Position numbers and translations under genes: made by a program. Below are positions 3 through 15,240 of a DNA stretch of 23,712 nucleotides, piece by piece. Source of the stretch: Chrysochromulina tobinii (lineage: Eukaryota > Haptophyta > Prymnesiales > Chrysochromulinaceae). Under the pieces are notes generated by a model. It saw only the letters and a program-made list of their open reading frames with translations, was not told the DNA's origin and did no database searches. The stretch is from the NCBI GenBank assembly GCA_001275005.1, contig JWZX01001071.1, positions 1-23,712 on the forward strand, read 5' to 3'. Positions within the stretch are counted from its first letter, which is position 1, and each line of letters starts with the position of its first letter.

Positions 3-3000
3 CCGCCCACGCCTCCACCCCCATCTCCACCGCCGGCTCCTCGCCAGCCACCCTTACCACTCCTGCCACCTGCGCCTGTCTTTCCAAGCTTGTTATGGGG
101 CGCCGGGAGCTCGCCCGACACGACGCGAGGCTTTGTCCGTCACGGCTGGCGCACCTACTGCAACTATGGGCTCGATCCGAATGCAACGGCTGGCGAGCCA
201 CTCCGGCTCATATCCCAGCCGTACTGCAGTGACGCCCCCACTGAATTCAGCTTCGACACCTCGCGCGCCCCCGCCCCCTTCAAAATGCCACGTGCCTCCA
301 ATACCACGGGGCACGCGTCCACATTGGGCGGGCTGGCTGACGTGGTGGCCATCGAGGAGTGCTACGACCTCAACTGCATGCGCTGCCTGAGTTTCTTCCA
401 CGAGTGTGCAGAGGCATCGAGGGTAGCCCAGGAAGGGCTCGCAGGCGGCGGCATCAGTGCCTCCAGCGCGAAGGGCCTCGGCTACATGGTTGTGGTCTCC
501 CTCTTCTCGGTGGTGATCTACTACTTGCTGCACTACTTTGCCATCTCTGGGATCGGAATGCCGTGCACCACTAGTGCCGGTGAGCGCGCCTTGATGATCC
601 AAATGATCTTCACGCTAGCCTCGTTCGTGCTCTTCGTCGTCTTCTATGTCAACTCGGGCTTCCTGTATTACAAGGTTCGCAACCCGTTTGGGACCCTCAG
701 CTTCGCCCTCTACGCCGTCGCCGAGATGTTCGGGCTGCTCTTGTCGTACGGCTTCTTCCTGGTCTTCATCGGTTTCGTCTTCACACCGCTCTTGATGAAC
801 TGGCTATTCCGGCTCCTCGGCCGGCTCGCGCTGCGGGCGCAGCAGTTCCCAAAGCAGCAGTTCATCAACGAGATGTACGAGGGCGCACTCTGGCTCCCGC
901 ACAAGGTGCTCTCCTACTCGAGCTTGAGAAGCCTTGATTGCGTCTGATTGCGTCCCTCATCAGGTGTCCCTCGAGCTTGAGAAGCCTTGATTGCGCCTGA
1001 TTGCGTCCCTCATCAGGTGCTCTCATACTCGAGCTTCGGCGTGCTCCTAGGCACGATGCTCTCGACGACCATGCCCATCACCCTCGGCATGGTCTCCGCC
1101 TCGTGCTTCCTCCGCTACGCCATCGACCGCGGCTTCTTTCTGCTCCGCGTCTACCAAAGGCCCGACCCCATCGACGGCACGCTCGTCAAGTTCTGCGTCC
1201 GCCTCTTGCCCATCGGCCTCGTCGCTAAGGTCTGCGCCATGTACCTCCACTACGCCGGCTCGCCCGCTCGCAGCTTCCCCATCGATATCCTTCTCGGGCT
1301 CACGGTCGGCTACGCGGCCATCTTTTTCGTCGTCGGCACCGACCTCGCTTTCTGGGCCTCGACTCTGGGCCTTGCACAAGCGCCGTCGCGCGACATTGCC
1401 AACTTCTTCACGCACCAGGCCCTCGTGCGCAGCGGCTTGGTCGACTCGTACGATCCGCTCCGAAAGGACGAGGCCCAGAAGCTCGAGGACCGCAAGGCCG
1501 CAAAGCTCTCTGCGAGCGAACCCGAGCGTGGGACGCGCACGGACCGTGCCGCTATGGCGGCAGCCGCGGCGGCTCGGCAAGGCTCAAGCGAGGGCCTCTC
1601 CGCCCCCCAGTGGCACCAGTGGCCCGCCGCCCGCGCTGAAGAGCCTCTCTCGACGTGGGACACTCTCCGTAGTCGACTCACTACCCAGTCTCTCCGCCGC
1701 TCCCTTGCCGGCTTCTCCTCCGGCGCTGACGCGGACACGGACGTCCCACCACCGCCCGCCCTTGCCGCCGACGCGCCGCCGTCGAGGACAGCGCCGCCGC
1801 GACGCTCGTCAGTCGCCGGCGCTGACCTCTCACGGGCCCCAAGCGATGCCGAGTGGGCGGCGCCACCGTCGAAGAGGCTGGGGTCGTCGATGTCCGGCGC
1901 AGATCGCTTCAAAAGGACCATTGATGCCGTGCTGAAGCTTGACGCGAAGATTGGCACGACGGAGGAGGCGATGCACCGCGCGTCCACCAAGGCTAGCAGC
2001 GGTGCTTCTCGTCGCAAGCGCACGGGCGACTCGTGGCGGCCAGTCGTCTGGCGCAACCCCAGCACGCTGCCAGTCGTGTGCATGTGCCCCAATTCTTGCG
2101 AGCCGGCGCACGTGCGTACGACTGACCTTTGGACGGAGCACACGTCGGCTCGATTTGGGACGGCGCGCTGGTGCCGCGCCTCGCGCCTCGGCGGCGCGAC
2201 CGAGGTGCACACCTTTGGCAGCTGGGTTGAGCTGCGCCTGTGGATGGAGACGAATCTGCGCACGCTCATCTCCGATCGTACGAGCCCATCGGCCATCGGG
2301 CAGAGCGGGGAGGTCGCCGTTGGCAGCATCGGGTCAGCCCTTGCGGTCGACGGCAGCGGCGCGAGCGCGCTGTACGTGTTCACGGGGATGCCGGTGACGC
2401 TGCTTGCACCAAGCGAGCACACGGCGCAATGGATGCTCACAGTCTCGCGCGACCGTGGCGAGTTCCCCAACCTGCAATGGAAGGTCCTCGTGGCGACAGA
2501 GCGTAACGACTTTGACCACCTGCTCCGTCTGCACGGCTGCACCGACGAGCGGATCGCGGCGCAAGCCATCGAGGGTCGGACCGACGCTGAGCTGCGCCGC
2601 GAGCGCGACGCCGACGGCGCGGTGATCTGGCAGGTGCAGTGCATGGCCGCAGAGCTAATGCACGGCGGCGAGGGCCATGCCAGCGTACGGACGCGATGGG
2701 TTGCAGTGCTACGCGCGGGCGGCTGCCCCACAAAGATTGGATCGAGCTTCACCAACGTCGCACAGCGTGTGGACTGGGGCCACCCGAGCCACGCGCACGC
2801 CGACGCCGACCTCGCCGCCCGCCTCGCCGGCGCGTACCACCTCGTCGCGCTCGCCGGCACGGAGCACAAGTGCAATTTCCACGTGATGGCGTCGCTCCGG
2901 AAAGGCTCCGATTGGTCTGAGCAGTTCGTGTACGCGGCGCCGTTTTGGCCCGCGGCGTACCTCGCGTCGCGGCAGGCGCCAAAGGACATGCTCCTTTCGC

Positions 3001-5469
3001 TCATCGCCTACTGCAATCACAGCTGGACGCTCGTCTTCACGCACGCGACCACCGCAGCCGCGCTCGGGCAAGAGGAAGAGGATGAAGAGGAGGACGGTCG
3101 TCTCAGCGATGCCGCCGTGAGCCAGATGTCTTCATTCGGGGCGGCGGCGTCGGTCTTCCTGAGAGGATTCGGCTTCTCGAAGAAATCGGGCATCACGCCG
3201 AGCATGTCGTACGACAAGGCCTTTAGTGTGCTGGATAAGGACGGCAGCGGTAGTATCTCCGTCAGCGAGCTCAAGGCGGCGCTCGTCAAGGAGGGCAGTT
3301 CGGACGTGCTGGAGGCAGAGATCCAGAGCCTCATAGACCAGGTCGATGTCAGTGGCGACGGCGAGCTGCAGCTCGATGAGTTCGAGACGTTCTGGGACCT
3401 CTTCAAGGCCAACTGCGAGGAGGCGGCGGCAGGCAAGCCGCCCACGCCTGGCCGCTTGAAGCCCAAGCCCAAGCCCAAGCCCAAGGCCAATCCCAACGCC
3501 GTGCCGCCCGTTCGCCAGAAGGTACTCGTGCAGCCCACGTGGCCGGCATCGGAGGTCGGTGCACTCGTCTCCAAAGGTTACACGATCACCACGGCGGCCT
3601 GTGGCCCAGGCGACGCCGCGATGAGTCGCGTCGTCGTGGTCGTTCTCACCAAGTCGCCGTCCACCATCAGCCCGCGCTTGCTCGGCACATTCGGCTCCAA
3701 CGAGCAGATCGTCGACACTTGGCGCTCGAACGAGACCCCAAATCACCGCAATTGGGCCGCTGCGGGGGGTGTCACCATCCGCGCGTCACAGACCGCCGCC
3801 GAGACGGACGATGATGTGAGGCTCGTGCGGGGGGCCAAGCTGCCCCCCTGGCTACACCGCAACGTGCGCTGTGCCCCCCCCCCGAGTGCCTGACCTGCGC
3901 CTCCCCCCCTCCCGAATGCCTGTGCCCCCCTATACCGACGCGTGGCAGCGTGCAGCTGCCAGTGCAGGGCCGCCGCTGCGGCTGCCGATGCCGCCGATTC
4001 CGCTGCTGCCGTTGCCGCTGCGTACAATCAAGCCTGCATTGACACGCGCCCGTTGTTTTGCCGTGTACACTCAGGAGCCCCCCGGCGCGACCCAATTCGC
4101 CATCGTGAACGTGCTCGATCCCGACCTTGCGTCCTTTTGGAGCTCTGGCGAGCTCCTCGAGCCGGGCGAGCCGGTCACCATTACCATCGATCTCGGGGTC
4201 ACGCGCAAAGTCGACTCCGTGATGGTACTGTGGGGAGATGTCGAGCCGTTACCGATGCCCAAGGCGTGGGAGCTCGTCGGAGGCACTGGCGGCAGCGTGT
4301 GGGACGGCCCAGACGACCCCCACACGCTCAATCCTGAGGAGCTCGGCCTGAACCTTCCAACGAAGACGCCCGGGGTCTTCCAGAGCAAGATGCATGCGCA
4401 CGTCGCAGGCGTGAGTCACAGCCTCGTCACGCTCACCTCCCCCAAGGATCTCCGCGTGCTCCAGCTCCGCCTGGTCACACCGCAGCCTAAGCATGAGGGG
4501 GGCGGCCGTCACGGCTTCTCCATACGTCGGATACTCGTGCTTGGCCCTTGGACCGAAGCGGCGAGCAAGGCGGCGAGGCCTGTGGCGAGCGAGGAGGCCC
4601 CTACCGAGTTGCGCATCGATGGCGATATGCCCATCGGCTTGACGCAGCAGGAGGTGATCATGCTCGAGCAGCTCAAGCTCAACGTGGAGAGCAACGTGCC
4701 AAAGCGTAGCAATTGGTCGAAGCTCGCAGGCAGCGTACTTGGAGACTCGGCGTCTGGGCAGGGCGAGCAGCTCGACATGCGCTCTCAGCCTGACTTGGCG
4801 AGTGGTGTGGCCGGCGATAGCCTTGCGACCCAGATGGCATCCGAGCTGCTCATCGATGGTGACTTACCCATCGGATTGACGCCGGACGAAGCGCGTGAGC
4901 TCGAGCAGCTCACGCAGCTATCCGAGCTACGCATTGATGGCGACCTACCGATCGGCTTGACGCCGGAGGAAGCGCGTGAGCTCGAGCAGCTAAAAGCGAG
5001 CACTTTGCCGGCCTCGGCCTCGCCGCCGCCGCGCACGCGCGGATCGAGCGGAGCCAATCAACTGGCAATCAAGGGAGATCAAGGGAGATCGAGCGGAGCC
5101 AAGCACCCATGTGCCAGCGTTCACACCCGCAGCGTTCACACCAAGAACCCGTTTGCCAAGCCCCTCGCCGCGGCCACGGCACCTGCTCGGAAGGAGACGG
5201 TCGAGGAGATCGCCGCGCGCATGATGGCGGACATCGATGACATAGCTTCGACATCGAGGGAGGCGCGCGGACGGTCGAGATCATTCGATGATGATGCTCC
5301 GCCGAAAGTGGTTGGGCAGCGCGACGGCCAACCTTCGCCCAGAGGGTTGGCGCCAAGTGTGGAGCGAAGGTCGCCGACCGCGCGAGCATCGAAGGAAAGG
5401 CGAACGCGCGATGAGCTGTTCAAGAGTGCGCGCGAACAGCTAGAGGAGGAGGCCGACTTCAGGATCTGA
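3..5469 (+). CDS. Large multi-pass membrane protein with EF-hand pair and discoidin-like C-terminal domain (5' partial)
   Basis: Exons 3-905, 1017-3863 and 4075-5469, all joined in phase 0, encode about 1,714 residues. The frame is open to the left edge, where it encodes a proline-rich stretch (PPTPPPSPPP), so the true start lies outside. Next come a Cys-containing segment, then about six hydrophobic helices coded at 480-555, 588-680, 698-815, 1035-1125, 1206-1260 and 1281-1365. The helix pattern around 860-1180 resembles the C-terminal helices of OSCA/TMEM63 (CSC1) channels; this is a tentative family impression. A long cytosolic part follows. Two EF-hand loops (DKDGSGSISVSE at 3234, DVSGDGELQLDE at 3345) suggest calcium binding. 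A KPKPKPKPK linker, a discoidin (F5/8-C)-like domain at 4075-4550 and three 23-residue repeats end the protein. The last exon could be a separate gene, but only about 25 bases separate the stop at 3893 from its first ATG, and the splice is in frame. Likely a membrane calcium-responsive protein; role unknown. Confidence 0.7.
906..1016 (+). other. Introner-like intron 1 of the membrane/EF-hand gene, internally duplicated
   Basis: GT-AG, phase 0, 111 bp, with an in-frame TGA at 945. The first 20 bases, starting GTGCTCTCC, are repeated with one mismatch directly after the intron at 1017. The intron consists of two tandem units, 906-963 and 964-1016, each carrying CTCGAGCTTGAGAAGCC, CTTGATTGCG and TCCCTCATCAG. 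Removing it joins K to VLSYSSFG without loss or repetition. Confidence 0.85.
3864..4074 (+). other. Conventional intron 2 of the membrane/EF-hand gene (C-rich)
   Basis: Donor AAC|GTGCGCTG, acceptor TACACTCAG|GAG, phase 0 on both sides, 211 bp and strongly C-rich. It joins the sequence ending PPWLHRN to EPPGATQFAIVNVLD, which starts the discoidin-like domain. It has no flanking exon duplication and lacks the TCCCTCATCAG end. Inferred from frame agreement only; if it is not spliced, translation stops at 3893. Confidence 0.6.
4606..4992 (+). repeat. Three 23-residue repeats in the membrane protein C-terminus
   Basis: Copies at 4606-4674, 4843-4911 and 4924-4992 share the core ELRIDGDLPIGLTPEEARELEQL. 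Copies 2 and 3 lie close together; copy 1 is separated by about 170 bases. The pattern is a charged turn (IDGD), PIGLT, then an amphipathic helix ending LEQL. I do not recognise the family. Confidence 0.85.
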
Positions 5470-6266: not shown

Positions 6267-9200
6267 TTCCATGTACATGAGCTGCACCGTATCGTCGCCG
6301 CTCTGCATGCCGTTTTCCTCGACGGCAGGGCCTGTCCCATGGAGTTGCTGCTCGCCCTCAACCAACTCCTCTGCCAGCTCCTCTGCCAGCACTGCCTCCT
6401 CCTGTGCGTCTTCCGCCCCGCCGTCCGCGTCCTCGTCGTCCTTGTCGTCGCTGACACCCTCCTCCTCGTCGTCCTCGTCGTCGCTGACGCCCTCCTCCTC
6501 GTCGTCCTCGTCGTCGCTGACGCCCTCCACCTGGTCGTCCTCGAGAGCGTTCTCAGCGTCTCCCTCGCTGTCCTCGGTCGGCGGCCCTGAGTGCTGCGAT
6601 AGCCGAGCTGCCTCTGCCTCGTACAGGGCCTCGCCCACCTCTTCCTCCTCGTCCTCGCTCTCGCCCTCGTCGTCTTCCATCCCCTCGTCGTCATCGTCCT
6701 CCGCCACAAAGATGCACGCCCTCGCGCGCGCACAAGGCGCCTCCCTTGAGCTCGAGCCCACCTCACTCGTCGCCGCCTCGACCGCACCACCCTTCGCCAC
6801 CTCATCAACCTCATCAGGCGTCGGCATGCCCGCAGCGAACGCGCCAGTGGCATCCCGGCCGCGGCGGGCGTAGTACGCGACACGCCGTGCGCTCTTCTTC
6901 TTCTTCGCGAGGGTCAGCTGCACGCTCTCGAGGGCAGGCATGCGCACAAGCACGGCCTCCGGGTCGTGCGCGGCCTGCGCGTCATCGATCGTGCCCTCTT
7001 CGATGAGATTCTGGATGAGGCTGTCGATGCGTACATCACGCTTGAACGCGCGCCGCGTGTGCGTGTGGAACTTGCACTCAGGGCAATCATGCCGGCCCAC
7101 GCGTAACCACTTCTCAACGCACTCTTGGCAGAAGCGATGCATGCAAGGCGCGACCACGGTGCGCTCGAGCACCTGCAAGCACACGGCGCAGTGCAGGAAG
7201 TGCAGCAGACCCCCGACAGAGCCGCTCACGCGCACCTGCTGCGTCACGTCCTCTTCGCCCTCAAGCTCGAGCTCGGGGCGCAAAAGCATGCGTGGTCGGC
7301 CGGGCAGCCCACGGCTCACAGTCTGGCTGCGCCCACGTCCACGCCCACGCCCACGTGCTCGCCCGCGCCCGCGTCCCTGAACCGTGGCTGCGGCTGCCGC
7401 TGCCACGAAAGTGGCCTCCTCGGTGAGCACCTTTGCGTCGCTGCTGCTGCCCGCCTCACTTTCGGCGGCGTCGGCGCCGTCTCTGCCGCTCTCGCCGCCG
7501 CCTCCAGCGTCGGCGCCGTCTCTGCCGCTCTCGCCGCCACCTCCAGCGCTCTCGCTGCCAGTGTCGTCGGCCGCCTCACCGCTCGAGCCGCGGTGCTCAC
7601 CGCGGCGGCGCTGCACGAGGGAGTGACGAGAGGCCGCCTGCAGCGCCTGCCGCTCGAGCTGGAGTAGCTTCTGCTTACGTCTCCAGATCGTCGAGCGATG
7701 CAGACCGAGGGCCTCAGCCTCGAGCACGTCCTCCGACGTCGGGCGCCGCTTGCCGTAACGGCCTCGACGACGGCCGAGCTGCCCGCTGCCCCGCGCATTC
7801 CTGGGCGACCAAGACCCGTCCTCGACTGCATCGCCCTCGACGGCGCCCTCGTCCTCCTCGTCCTCCTCGTCCTCTCGTCCTGAGGAGCCCGCCGAGCCCT
7901 CGAAGGCACCTTCGAGCTCGTCTTCGGCGAACGCGGCTGGCTGGAGTCGTCGGCCGCGGGCCGCGCGCCTCGGCGCCTCCGCGGCCGCGATCGCACGCGC
8001 CTCTGAACGCCCCGCCCCTTGGCTCGAGGCCGCTTGTGCGGCGGCGATCTGGCGGTCGGAGGTTGGCATCCCCGCGAGCACGTACTCGAGGGCACATTCG
8101 GGGCACATGCCCATCTGGAGCTGCACGTCTGCCGAGGGCATGCCACATCGCCTGCACGTCGGGCCGCAGAAGGCCGACTGTGACGTGCGCCGGCGCTTGG
8201 GTGGAGGCGCCGTAGCTGCTGTTGCACCCTGATCCTCCCTCGTGGCCGCTGGCGTCGGCGCCGCTGATGCCACCGGTGCAACCGTCGGAGGTGCGTACTT
8301 GGGCTTGAGCGAACCCAAAGGCTTAGCCTGCGGCTGTGACGAACCCAAAGGCTTAGCCTGCGGCTGTGACGAGCCCATAGGCTTAGCCTGCGGCTGTGAC
8401 GAACCCATAGGCTTGGCCTGCGGCTGTGACGAACCCATAGGCTTGGCCTGCGGCTGTGACGAACCCATAGGCTTGGCCTGCGGCTGTGACGAACCCAGAG
8501 GCTTGGCCTGCGGCTGTGACGAACCCAGAGGCTTGACCTGCGGCTGTGACGAACCCGAAGGCTTGGCCTGCGGCTGTGACGAACCCATAGGCTTGGCCTG
8601 CGGCTGTGGTGGGGTGCTGCTATGGCTCGGCTCGAGGCCCACACTCAGGAAGGCGGCAATGGCCTTCCTGGACGATGGGCGAGGCTTGGCTGCCGCAGAG
8701 CCGCGAGCGGCGGCAGCGCCAGCCGTCGACGGTAGATGCGGAAGCTTGCCTGTTCTCGCCACCTGCGAGGTGGGGTGTGCTGGCTTGCTGGCCGCCTTGC
8801 CGTCTTCCGCCGCGTTACCTTCGCACGAGGCAGCGGCCTCCACTGCCGCGGAAGTGGCAGTGCTTGTGGCATCACCTGACACTGCCGCCATCGCTGCGTT
8901 TGCGGCATTTGCGGCGGCGGCGGCAGCGACGGCTGCGCCGGCGGCGGCAGCCGCGTTCGTAGACACTGTGGGCGGATCACCGTCTTCGTTACAGGGCAGA
9001 AGCAATGGGTGCCCTTGGTGGCGCACAGCTGCTGAACGCGCATCCGAAGCTTCGGATGACGTGACGAGCATGTTGGCTGCAGCGACCAACTTCGAGCTCG
9101 CAGCCATGAGTGCGGCGGCCCTGGCAGCATTGCCGATCGTCGGGTGCTTGACCGCCTTTGTCGCCGCCTTTGCTGCCGAAACCGCCGCCTTGACGGCCTT

Positions 9201-12894: not shown

Positions 12895-15240
12895 ATGCCT
12901 TCCGACGCCAACAAGCCCGCGGACGCGCACGCGCTGGCGCAGCTGGCGGCTCGTATCGACGCCGCGCTCTCCGCATCGATTGGCGGCGCCTCGCTACTCC
13001 ACGGGCCGGCAGGCTGCGGCAAGACGAGGCTAGTCGACGCGCTCGGCAGACGGCTCTCGTGGCCCATCGTGCGCGTGAGCGTGGAGCGCGTGTGCCGTCC
13101 GCGTATTGGAGGCGCCGAGGCCGCGTTGCACGCCGAGTTGGATGCGGCGCGTGCCAGAGCGCCTTGCGTGCTCATCATCGACGAGCTGCACGCGCTCGCA
13201 CCTGCGAACGCGCTGCCCGGCAGCATGGAGTCGCGCTTGGCGCTCCAAGTGGCCGACGCATTGCAGGAGCTGCGAGCATCGGCTGTGTACACGGTGGGCG
13301 TCTGTCGCGAACCCGAGGCGCTGCACGCGGCAGTGCGCCGCAGTGGTCGCCTTCACCACCAGCTGGGCTTGCGAGCGCCCTCTCCGGCGGAGCGCTCGGC
13401 TATCCTCGAGTCGCTCGCAGAGCAGTTGCTGCCGTCCGGAGAAGCCGGCGACCGTATGCGTGCGACCGTGCGAGCGGTCGGCGCGGACGCGCACGGGCTG
13501 TGTGGCGCGCAGCTCGCCGGCCTGTGCCAGCACGCGGCAACTGCGGCGTGGAGGCGGGAACGAGCGGCGGCAGAGGCGGCGGAGGTGTCGGAGGCAGCAA
13601 CGAAGGCGGCGGAGGCGGATTCGAAGGCAACGGAGGCGGCGGATGCAGCGGCGAAGGCTAAGGCGCGAGCAGCTGCGGCGCCGGTGCTCGCTTTGTCTCC
13701 CGCGGCTAAAATCGACGCCAAAACCTTCCAGAAGCAATGGGAGAGCCTTCCCACAGCGGCGACGTGGTCAGCAGTCGTCGGCGGCTCAGGTGTCGTCGAG
13801 GGGCTCAAGGACCGCCTCGCTGCCAAGCACGTGAAGTGCATGGCCTCTGGCGCACAGGCCGACGTGTCCAAGTTCTACTTGTATGCCGTCGAGGCGACGA
13901 CGAGCTGCCTGGTGCTCGTTGAGCTTCAGGTCGCTTGGCCGTTAGGCCAAGCTTCCACAGTCATCAAGGGGGATCCGAACGCGGCTGCTGTCATTGCTCC
14001 CTTATCAGCCCTCCTCCTGGCAGAGCTGACATGCGAGCAAGTGGTGGCCGAGGAGCCTCGCGACGAAGAGCAGCACGAGCGGCCGGCCGAAGTGGGCGAG
14101 GCACACGGGGCGGAGGCTGGTGGCCTGAGTGTGCCCCTTGGCCGGCCGAGCGAGGCTGAATGGTGGGCTGTGATGCATGAGAGACCGATCGACCCGCTTG
14201 CCTATGGTTGCCTCTCTCATCGCCCCCGATCGCCCCCTCCCTCATCAGGTGGGCTGCCATGCATGCAGCGCGATCGAGTGCTCTGAGCGCGCTCCGGCTG
14301 CCGACGCTATCTCCGAGTGGTGCTCGAGATGGTATCTCCGCGGCCGCGGCGCTCGAGGCGCTGCGCACGATGCCCTCTGGAGAGGCCCTGCTGGCGAGCT
14401 TGATCGCGCCGCTGCGCTCGCCACACGTGCTCGCGGCCCTGGGCGTGCGCCCGCTGGGCGGCGTGCTTCTGCACGGGCCTGCCGGCTGTGGGAAAACGAC
14501 CCTCGCGCGCTACGTGGCCGCGGCGGCCGCGGCCAATTTCGTCGAAGTGCCCGCCGCGGCGCTCATCTCTTCCACAGTGGGCGCGTCCGAACGCAACCTC
14601 GCGAGGCTCCTCGGCGCCGCGCGCGCCGCCGCGCCGTGCATCCTCTTCCTGGATGGCCTCGAGTCGCTAGCTCCGGTGCGCGGGGCGGACACCCGCCGAT
14701 GACCTCTGATTGCCTATTGATTGCCTTTGAGGACCTCTTGATTGCCTCCCTCATCAGGTGCGCGGGGCGGACACCACGACAGAGGGGACGATGGACAGAT
14801 TGCTCTCGCTCTTGCTGTGCGAGCTAGACGGCGCTCGCCAACACGGCAGCGATGGCAGCCCGCCCCTCGTGCTACTGGGCGCCACGCGCGAGCGCTCCCT
14901 TTTGGACCCTGCCATCCTGCGCCCCGGTCGTCTCGACGTACACCTGCACGTCGGCCTGCCGGACGCTGTGCAGAGGCGCGCTCTCCTCCAGCATCAGCTG
15001 CTCGCAAGCACCCCCGTCGCGTGGGCGAAGGCGGCAGAGCACGAGGCGGCAGAGCAGGCAGCGGCCACGGACGCGGCCGGCGCAGGTGACGTGTCGCTCG
15101 AGTGGCTCGTCGCGCTGACCGAGGGCTATTCCCTCGCACAGCTGAGCGCGCTCTGCCGCAAAGCGGCGATGGCTGCCCTGCGCGAGAGCTTGGACGCGCC
15201 GCGGGTGCAGATGGCGCATTTTGAGGGTGCTCTCTTGTAG
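12895..15240 (+). CDS. Tandem (two-ring) AAA ATPase with beta-adaptin appendage-like insert
   Basis: Exons 12895-14162, 14249-14675 and 14758-15240, about 725 residues. Two AAA modules of the Cdc48/AFG2/PEX type are seen. D1: Walker A GPAGCGKT (about 36-44), Walker B VLIIDEL (about 92-98), Arg-finger-like SGRL. D2: Walker A GPAGCGKTT (about 500), Walker-B-like ILFLDGLESL (about 553-563, glutamate replaced by Gly), Arg finger RPGRLD (about 619). Between them lie an Ala/Glu/Lys coiled linker (about 222-276) and a segment (about 277-380: FQKQWESLPTAA ... LVELQVAW) resembling the C-terminal lobe of the beta-adaptin appendage. Such ATPases unfold or extract proteins. The N-terminal domain is almost absent, so substrate recruitment may use the insert. 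An in-frame ATG at 12817 is an alternative start, adding 26 residues. AFG2B/SPATA5L1-like and PEX1-like are both possible; I assign no symbol. Confidence 0.75.
14163..14248 (+). other. Introner-like intron 1 of the AAA gene
   Basis: GT-AG, 86 bp, splits TG|G (Trp). The donor side GTGGGCTGTGATGCATG is repeated with two mismatches right after the intron at 14249 (GTGGGCTGCCATGCATG). It ends CTCCCTCATCAG. Without splicing the frame ends at 14286, before D2. Confidence 0.8.
14676..14757 (+). other. Introner-like intron 2 of the AAA gene
   Basis: GT-AG, 82 bp, phase 0. Its first 18 bases (GTGCGCGGGGCGGACACC) are identical to the first 18 bases of the next exon at 14758. Inside are CTGATTGCC, TTGATTGCC and TTGATTGCC, and the end is TCCCTCATCAG. 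Its length is not a multiple of three, and an in-frame stop at 14700 requires its removal. Confidence 0.9.

What the first reader, a model, noticed from the sequence alone, without database searches (positions are those of the whole stretch)
14163..14757. Three introns in two genes share a terminal TCCCTCATCAG and sit in 17-20 bp exon duplications: a new introner family?
Introns at 906-1016, 14163-14248 and 14676-14757 all end TCCCTCATCAG; the first and third also carry TGATTGC units. Each begins with a copy of the bases that start the next exon: 20 bp with one mismatch, 17 bp with two mismatches, and 18 bp exact. All exon copies start GTG, so the duplication itself creates the 5' splice site while the element supplies the CAG end. 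This is how introners (intron-generating transposons) are known to insert, but the duplication is longer than the 8-bp class usually described. The exact 18-bp match suggests a recent event. Conventional introns nearby have none of this.
Basis: partly seen in the sequence, partly recalled or inferred. Interest (0 to 1): 0.85.

Follow-up and report, generated by a model that had tools for sequence, protein, structure and literature searches.

The report
Self-copying introns with long target duplications
In the small alga Chrysochromulina tobinii, a large family of introns shares one ending, and many of them sit in unusually long, variable duplications of the gene they interrupt; one intron in this window looks like a shortened copy of an intron of another gene, so new introns here may arise by copying old ones.

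Summary
Confirmed and extended. The window is a Chrysochromulina tobinii contig. All three introns exist, end TCCCTCATCAG and start with a copy of the next exon. They belong to a family: CCTCATCAGGT occurs 2,093 times in the genome, reversed control 8. Of 40 copies chosen by end motif, 20 have a flanking direct repeat, against 0.19% of swapped-exon controls; 18 have none. In 44 clean copies the repeat is 16-48 bp; 3-9 bp is given in print for earlier introner families. Removing introns restores a AAA+ frame and a Lon protease piece that aligns without a gap to solved Lon. Eight metagenomic homologues read through intron site 2 and seven through site 3, of 11 aligned. Window intron 1 shares 102 bp (99%) with a pyruvate-carboxylase intron on contig C1205, cut at its 5' side, ending at the AG and meeting its target at 9 shared bases. 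So the mobile part seems to be an intron's 3' part; the duplication supplies the 5' splice site. I favour target-primed reverse transcription of excised intron RNA; DNA template switching is not excluded. No RNA-seq, nucleotide empty site or enzyme was available.

The parts
906..1016 (+). intron 1: two tandem 53-bp units; 917-1016 matches the C1205 pyruvate-carboxylase intron
906..925 (+). 5' copy of the target duplication of intron 1; supplies the GT; last 9 bp shared with the inserted unit
1017..1036 (+). 3' (exon) copy of the duplication of intron 1
998..1016 (+). family 3' end TGATTGCGTCCCTCATCAG: branch-point-like TGAT, pyrimidine-rich run, AG acceptor (splicing roles inferred)
14163..14248 (+). 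intron 2, in the AAA+ ATPase gene
14163..14179 (+). 5' copy of the duplication of intron 2 (17 bp, 2 mismatches)
14249..14265 (+). exon copy of the duplication of intron 2
14676..14757 (+). intron 3, in the AAA+ ATPase gene
14676..14693 (+). 5' copy of the duplication of intron 3 (18 bp exact)
14694..14757 (+). inserted body of intron 3: TGATGACC / TGATTGCC repeats, then TGATTGCCTCCCTCATCAG
14758..14775 (+). exon copy of the duplication of intron 3
12895..15240 (+). AAA+ ATPase gene interrupted by introns 2 and 3; 725 aa once both are removed
3..3893 (+). gene interrupted by intron 1 (partial at the contig start; 1,259 codons and a stop once the intron is removed; hydrophobic stretches read by eye suggest a membrane protein, no Pfam match in its first 495 residues)

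Best explanation
These are members of a large family of mobile spliceosomal introns that works like introners. A new intron forms when a copy of the 3' part of an existing intron (branch-point-like CTGAT repeats of 10-11 nt, pyrimidine-rich run, ATCAG) is placed between the two arms of a staggered break in an exon. The copy ends at the donor's 3' splice site; its 5' end is truncated at varying points and often joined through a few shared bases. Filling the stagger duplicates some 16-48 bp of exon; the upstream arm, which usually starts GT, becomes the 5' splice site, so the mRNA is unchanged. SHOWN: family size, duplications in about half of sampled copies, restored frames, intron-free homologues, one case of a shared 102-bp intron core in two unrelated genes. 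INFERRED: actual splicing, the direction of that copy, and the template. The most likely template is excised intron RNA, whose 3' end is exactly this AG, copied by target-primed reverse transcription with a reverse transcriptase supplied in trans. I put about 0.95 on the mobile-intron part and about 0.5 on the RNA part.
For: Family: exact counts 993, 879, 2,093, 3,915; reversed controls 0, 0, 8, 144. Duplications: 20 of 40 sampled copies versus 0.19% of 1,560 controls; 44 clean copies 16-48 bp, median 25.5, 18 perfect. Exon start: GT follows 60 of 70 non-tandem copies in nine stretches, background 4.8%. Frames: AAA+; Lon with eight introns removed, 291 residues aligned without a gap. Gain: 8 of 8 homologues P0015-P0022 are uninterrupted at site 2 and 7 of 7 that reach it at site 3; the three closest relatives carry an intron at site 2. 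Donor and recipient: CTCGAGCTTGAGAAGCC occurs four times in 53 Mb, twice here and twice on C1205; on C1205 it lies where pyruvate carboxylase would continue. 5' junctions: 9 shared bp in that case; 2 bp or more at 11 of 24 testable junctions (p 0.0005 to 0.025 under a null that allows chance extension). Near-identical bodies with different flanks: L065 (two different duplications), L061, L112/L117.
Against: 18 of 40 sampled copies show no duplication (score 8 or less); they may be old or multi-unit introns longer than my 220-bp view, but I did not show that. All copies were found by their 3' end, so a fixed 3' end is partly built into the sample. Nine more clean copies score 9-11, six of them with repeats of only 9-13 bp, so the lower limit of 16 is soft. 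None of 20 reverse-transcriptase loci held (of 26 hits), +-1.5 kb, has CCTCATCAG; two have the 8-mer CTCATCAG on the other strand. No A-rich tail. The repeats upstream of the fixed end are not explained by simple truncation. Repeat and body lengths are negatively correlated (r -0.57); selection for introns of about 80 nt could cause that, so could another mechanism. The donor gene on C1205 lacks a third copy of its repeat, ends in an unrelated acidic tail and has a second duplicated exon stretch. Sense bias (81 of 83) is expected from selection alone.
Confidence: 0.6

Rival explanations
1. DNA-only copying: a stalled or broken exon end switches template by microhomology to an intron elsewhere, copies to its 3' end and switches back upstream at a GT, which leaves a duplication (MMBIR-like, name recalled; or staggered-break repair as proposed for Daphnia).
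For: Microhomology at 5' junctions; donors and targets share GT at the 3' junction; tandem units are frequent; staggered-break direct repeats of 4-12 bp are described in Daphnia (passages of PMC4202315).
Against: AG precedes the duplication at only 13 of 44 target sites, so the 3' junction shows little microhomology beyond GT. Thousands of copies of one family are not expected from general repair.
Confidence: 0.3
2. A non-autonomous DNA transposon of the usual introner type, moved by a transposase in trans.
For: Introner families with a self-carried 3' splice site and a TSD-derived 5' splice site are known (Symbiodinium; PMC9860276). The terminal 20-mer CTGATTGCCTCCCTCATCAG itself begins CTGAT and ends ATCAG, a 5-bp inverted pair.
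Against: Repeat length varies from 16 to 48 bp; no 8-nt inverted copy of the 3' end at the intron start or body start in 44 of 44 clean copies; no conserved 5' end seen in the copies listed.
Confidence: 0.07
3. Tandem duplication of an exon stretch containing AGGT made each intron, and the shared ends are convergent splicing signals.
For: Each window intron starts with a copy of the next exon.
Against: The 19-mer TGATTGCCTCCCTCATCAG occurs 879 times exactly, reversed control 0; intron bodies listed are not copies of local exon; intron 1 holds a sequence otherwise found only on C1205.
Confidence: 0.02
4. Assembly artefact or coding minisatellite, not introns.
For: Internal 10-11 bp repeats and tandem units; draft 454/Illumina assembly (PMC4580454 passages); L091 and L096 are the same sequence on two contigs.
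Against: Removal restores conserved proteins; a 99%-identical environmental protein (P0012) runs into the intron at site 2.
Confidence: 0.01

Closest known systems
Introners (Gozashti et al. 2022, PMC9860276; parts 1-3 of 7 of the text and passages read; supplementary tables not read)
   Same: Many similar introns in different genes; insertion into exon with TSD; 5' splice site taken from the TSD and 3' splice site carried by the element, as in their Symbiodinium example.
   Different: The text gives 3-9 bp repeats for earlier families and 4- and 8-bp examples; here 16-48 bp and variable. No inverted repeats found. Similarity does not reach the 5' end, which their filter required. Their Chrysochromulina sp. 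example is the reverse: 4-bp TSD, element carries the 5' splice site.
Newly gained introns of Daphnia by staggered double-strand breaks (PMC4202315, passages)
   Same: [quoted passage not shown] fill-in of a stagger.
   Different: 33 such repeats of 4-12 bp; here longer, and one sequence family with thousands of copies.
Introner elements of Amoebophrya (PMC7789003, passages)
   Same: Family of repeated introns with direct repeats at the boundaries.
   Different: 3-5 nt direct repeats, 8-20 nt inverted repeats, mostly non-canonical splice sites.
Direct repeats near splice sites of 213 introns (PMC11782384, abstract and passages)
   Same: Repeats of 4-30 bp at or near intron borders taken as insertion marks.
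   Different: A survey of individual introns from many taxa, mean 11.4 bp, not of one mobile family.
Non-LTR retrotransposons / SINEs moved by target-primed reverse transcription (features recalled)
   Same: Variable-length duplications, fixed 3' end, 5' truncation, microhomology at the 5' junction.
   Different: The unit is an intron tail ending in AG, without an A-rich tail; no partner element found.

Membership tests
Introner (2022 survey definition) | similar introns at many non-paralogous positions | tested here: met
   paralogy was excluded only for pairs with different downstream exon
Introner (2022 survey definition) | similarity extends to near both splice boundaries | tested here: not met
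   3' yes; the first 16-48 nt of clean copies are target-derived
Introner (2022 survey definition) | created by insertion into exon, orthologues without it | tested here: met
   protein level only, for introns 2 and 3; intron 1 had no homologue to compare
Introner of DNA-transposon type | short TSD (3-9 bp) | tested here: not met
   16-48 bp in 44 clean copies; some weaker 9-13 bp cases
Introner of DNA-transposon type | terminal inverted repeats | tested here: not met
   0 of 44 at 8 nt; no pair joins the two ends of a window intron; 5-bp CTGAT/ATCAG in the terminal 20-mer noted
Introner (2022 survey definition) | spliced in RNA-seq | not testable with these tools
   only indirect: restored frames
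TPRT-type retroelement | variable-length target duplications | tested here: met
TPRT-type retroelement | fixed 3' end with 5' truncation, microhomology at 5' junctions | tested here: inconclusive
   one traced case and 11 of 24 junctions, moderate statistics; the fixed 3' end is partly built into the sampling
TPRT-type retroelement | partner element with the same 3' end and reverse transcriptase | tested here: inconclusive
   20 of 26 RVT_1 loci held, +-1.5 kb, none has CCTCATCAG; 10 of the 20 scanned with Pfam; draft assembly
Daphnia-type break repair | short (4-12 bp) repeats | tested here: not met
   most clean repeats are longer

The most novel reading that the evidence does not exclude
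Spliceosomal introns in this alga reproduce through their own excised RNA: the RNA's 3' end is reverse-transcribed at a nicked exon, the copy is 5'-truncated, and a 16-48 bp duplication of the target supplies a fresh 5' splice site. That would be retrotransposition of intron tails with target duplication, in which any well-spliced intron can be a parent and carries bits of its host's exon along.
Probability: 0.4. Interest if true: 0.92.

Novelty: new variant of a known kind. Interest (0 to 1): 0.74.

Why it matters
How new spliceosomal introns arise is a long-open question, and the 2022 survey credits most recent bursts to DNA transposons. A family with thousands of matching ends, long variable duplications, no inverted repeats and one apparent donor intron gives an organism in which intron-from-intron copying can be tested directly. 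It also points to a blind spot: a survey that demands similarity at both intron ends would tend to pass such a family by.

Tried and rejected
Rfam at gathering threshold on the window, L061, L063 and L065: no match. Reverse transcriptases: 26 RVT_1 hits; 10 of 20 loci scanned with Pfam, two with RNase H (LTR-like), one without a family at 1e-5; none linked to the family. GIY-YIG: 4 hits, not followed. Viral contigs searched for two forms of the motif: 0 and 0. Homologues of the intron 1 gene: none. The first junction test overstated significance because chance extension of the repeat adds overlap; recomputed with a null that allows it. Among the 93 similar pairs (40 shown), many reflect the CTGATGACC minisatellite or tandem copies and were not used. 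In one search, L091 and L096 are one sequence on two contigs and L100 is a tandem unit, not a target duplication: with one of the pair kept and L100 dropped, 18 of 38 score 10 or more; three of these (L099, L106, L108) follow another element end. The 40 were picked, so their motif includes the following GTA or GTG, and I passed over places with another listed match close by. The 44 clean copies are what is left of 84 with score 12 or more (66 of 134, 18 of 40) after dropping repeats over 50 bp, duplicates, copies after another element end and copies with an inner end; four have element-like sequence inside the repeat, and without them n is 40, 16-48 bp, median 24.5, r -0.55. A third conventional intron end used was wrong and was redone.

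Full report
WHAT AND WHERE. The window equals a 23,712-base contig of Chrysochromulina tobinii (a haptophyte): a protein encoded in it is Ctob_008520, on a contig of that length. The draft assembly is held as G000, 53.15 Mb in 2,253 contigs; the window is C383. The genome paper (passages) gives 16,777 genes and on average one intron per gene; its main text has 'intron' once and no word starting 'transpos' or 'retro'.

All three introns, their shared end and their repeats are as described. Repeat scores are 17, 11 and 18, against 4, 4 and 4 for three conventional-looking introns of a neighbouring gene, and 0.19% of 1,560 swapped-exon controls reach 11.

THE FAMILY. Exact matches in G000, both strands: TCCCTCATCAGGTG 993, TGATTGCCTCCCTCATCAG 879, CCTCATCAGGT 2,093, CCTCATCAG 3,915; the same patterns read backwards give 0, 0, 8 and 144. 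Two longer forms with CTGATTGCATG and CTGATGACCT units occur 57 and 77 times. Most copies that I listed carry 10-11 bp units beginning CTGAT (or close to it), then a pyrimidine-rich run, then ATCAG. CTGAT fits the usual branch-point consensus (recalled), so the conserved stretch looks like branch point to 3' splice site.

DUPLICATIONS. I took 40 copies from places listed, chosen by motif and not by their flanks, passing over places with a close second match. A direct repeat of the exon start at the intron start scores 10 or more in 20 of 40, versus 0.19% of controls in which exons were swapped between copies. With one duplicate sequence and one tandem unit dropped this is 18 of 38. Eighteen of 40 score 8 or less and show no repeat. 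In 44 clean copies (of 84 with score 12 or more; drops listed in Tried and rejected) the repeat is 16-48 bp, median 25.5; 18 are perfect; the intron median is 80.5 nt. No perfect repeat of 12-15 bp was seen, but nine more clean copies score 9-11 and six of those have repeats of 9-13 bp, so shorter duplications probably exist. In nine continuous stretches, picked for density apart from the window, GT follows 60 of 70 non-tandem copies, background 4.8%.

THEY BEHAVE AS INTRONS. Taking out introns 2 and 3 gives a 725-residue AAA+ protein (Pfam AAA, E 9.6e-51); left in, they bring stops. On contig C289 (L067) I removed eight GT..AG segments, boundaries chosen by eye with Lon in mind: six end CTCATCAG, one CTCGTCAG, one TGGAGCAG. 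The result is a 303-residue piece without a stop, where the unspliced frames have 27, 38 and 37. It aligns to solved Lon (3m6a, ATP-dependent protease La 1) over 291 residues without a gap, so the joins fit. In the nine stretches 81 of 83 ends lie on the majority strand of their stretch. Direct RNA evidence could not be had.

THEY WERE GAINED. The AAA+ protein has 40 metagenomic or other homologues at E <= 0.001; I aligned the best 11. At site 2 (codon 423) eight read straight through (P0015-P0022, 52-67% identity over the matched part). The three closest, 91-99% identical, run into an intron there, so that gain is probably older than their split. At site 3 (residue 565) the seven that reach it read through; four end before it. 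These are protein-level empty sites; nucleotide empty sites were not available.

A DONOR. Window 917-1018 matches contig C1205 over 102 bp at 99%, and its 17-mer CTCGAGCTTGAGAAGCC exists only four times in the genome, two in each place. The C1205 gene is pyruvate carboxylase (best match a mitochondrial pyruvate carboxylase, 3bg3, E 1.3e-28), and GTGTCCCTCGAGCTTGAGAAG there encodes VSLELEK in frame, aligned with the enzyme's continuation (EFEVELER). My query for this was a composite: the gene repeats a 33-36 bp exon stretch, and VSLELEK follows the second copy. Seven residues are thin, but the simplest reading is that this is carboxylase exon sequence, carried inside the carboxylase intron and then into the gene of this window. 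The window copy lacks the first six bases of the unit, ends at the AG, and meets its target through CTCGAGCTT, nine bases present in both. The opposite direction is not formally excluded. The C1205 gene is odd in that an acidic tail, not more carboxylase, follows the intron.

OTHER COPIES. Identical 52-bp bodies sit in two different duplications 1.2 kb apart (L065); a 45-bp body occurs twice in L061 with different flanks; L112 and L117 share 58 of 62 bp (L117 has no detectable duplication); L020 and L064 share 66 of 73 bp, including the first one's repeat, which has no clear match in the second one's exon (from 186 copies). Testable 5' junctions share 2 bp or more with the element's next unit in 11 of 24 cases, swapped control 6.5%; a null allowing chance extension gives 16-26% and p between 0.0005 and 0.025.

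MECHANISM. A 3' end at the AG, a variable 5' end, a long variable duplication and 5' microhomology are marks of target-primed reverse transcription (recalled), and an excised intron's 3' end lies exactly at the AG. Because I found copies by their 3' end, its constancy is partly built in; the C1205 case is the best independent support. The C1205 intron could be excised from its two-unit start (106 nt) or from the earlier exon copy (191 nt); both joins lead into the same downstream frame, and only the second is open upstream into carboxylase. I found no enzyme: 26 reverse-transcriptase hits exist, and none of the 20 loci held carries CCTCATCAG. DNA template switching at GT could give a similar product; AG precedes the duplication at 13 of 44 sites, which does not favour it but does not exclude it. 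The negative correlation of repeat and body length (r -0.57; -0.55 without four doubtful copies) suggests selection for an intron of about 80 nt.

COMPARISON. The 2022 introner survey (PMC9860276, parts 1-3 of 7 and passages) gives 3-9 bp repeats for earlier families and 4- and 8-bp examples, asks for similarity near both intron ends, and shows a Chrysochromulina sp. family from a TARA genome with a 4-bp TSD that carries the 5' splice site. Daphnia repeats are 4-12 bp, Amoebophrya 3-5 nt; a survey of 213 introns saw 4-30 bp, mean 11.4. A mirusvirus paper compared viral introns with the introner database and found no hits (passages). In the listings of my searches (with 40 of 67 shown, 24, 25, 32, 57, 58, 81, 82) and the papers opened I saw no account of this family; supplementary tables, preprints and most subscription papers were not seen.

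VERDICT. It works like an introner, but with a different insertion signature: a new variant of a known kind. The RNA route is the bold reading and remains untested.

Noticed in passing
L129, L100, L130 (C1205:12500-13700, minus strand): The pyruvate-carboxylase gene that shares intron 1's core stops matching carboxylase after VSLELEK; the spliced frame continues into an acidic and then basic tail. Gene fusion, truncation or assembly error.
   Followed up: partly
L100 upstream part (C1205): A 33-36 bp exon stretch (CTCTTCCTCAAG..GGGCAGGAG) is duplicated around a TGATGAGCCC repeat that does not end in CATCAG: a duplication without the family end.
   Followed up: no
L064 around 4600-4700: Tandem array of a 21-bp unit CTGATTGCCTCCCTCATCAGG, four successive potential 3' splice sites.
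   Followed up: no
L067 (C289): A Lon protease gene with at least eight introns in 1.7 kb, some multi-unit, against a reported average of about one intron per gene.
   Followed up: partly
L067 reverse complement 2100-2450: Minisatellites of the CCTGATGACCCAACCTCCCCACAATCT and AGATACGAGATTGTGGGG kind, seen by eye.
   Followed up: no
window 8302-8608: Ten copies of a 30-bp minisatellite inside a long minus-strand open frame.
   Followed up: no
44 clean copies, first six bases of the duplication: The intron copy differs from the exon copy more often in the first 6 bases (28 of 264) than later (39 of 967), as if new 5' splice sites were being adjusted, or as an effect of my allowing up to three leading mismatches.
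   Followed up: no
L091 and L096: The same 299 bp lie on two contigs (C498, C908): overlapping contigs, alleles or a recent duplication.
   Followed up: no
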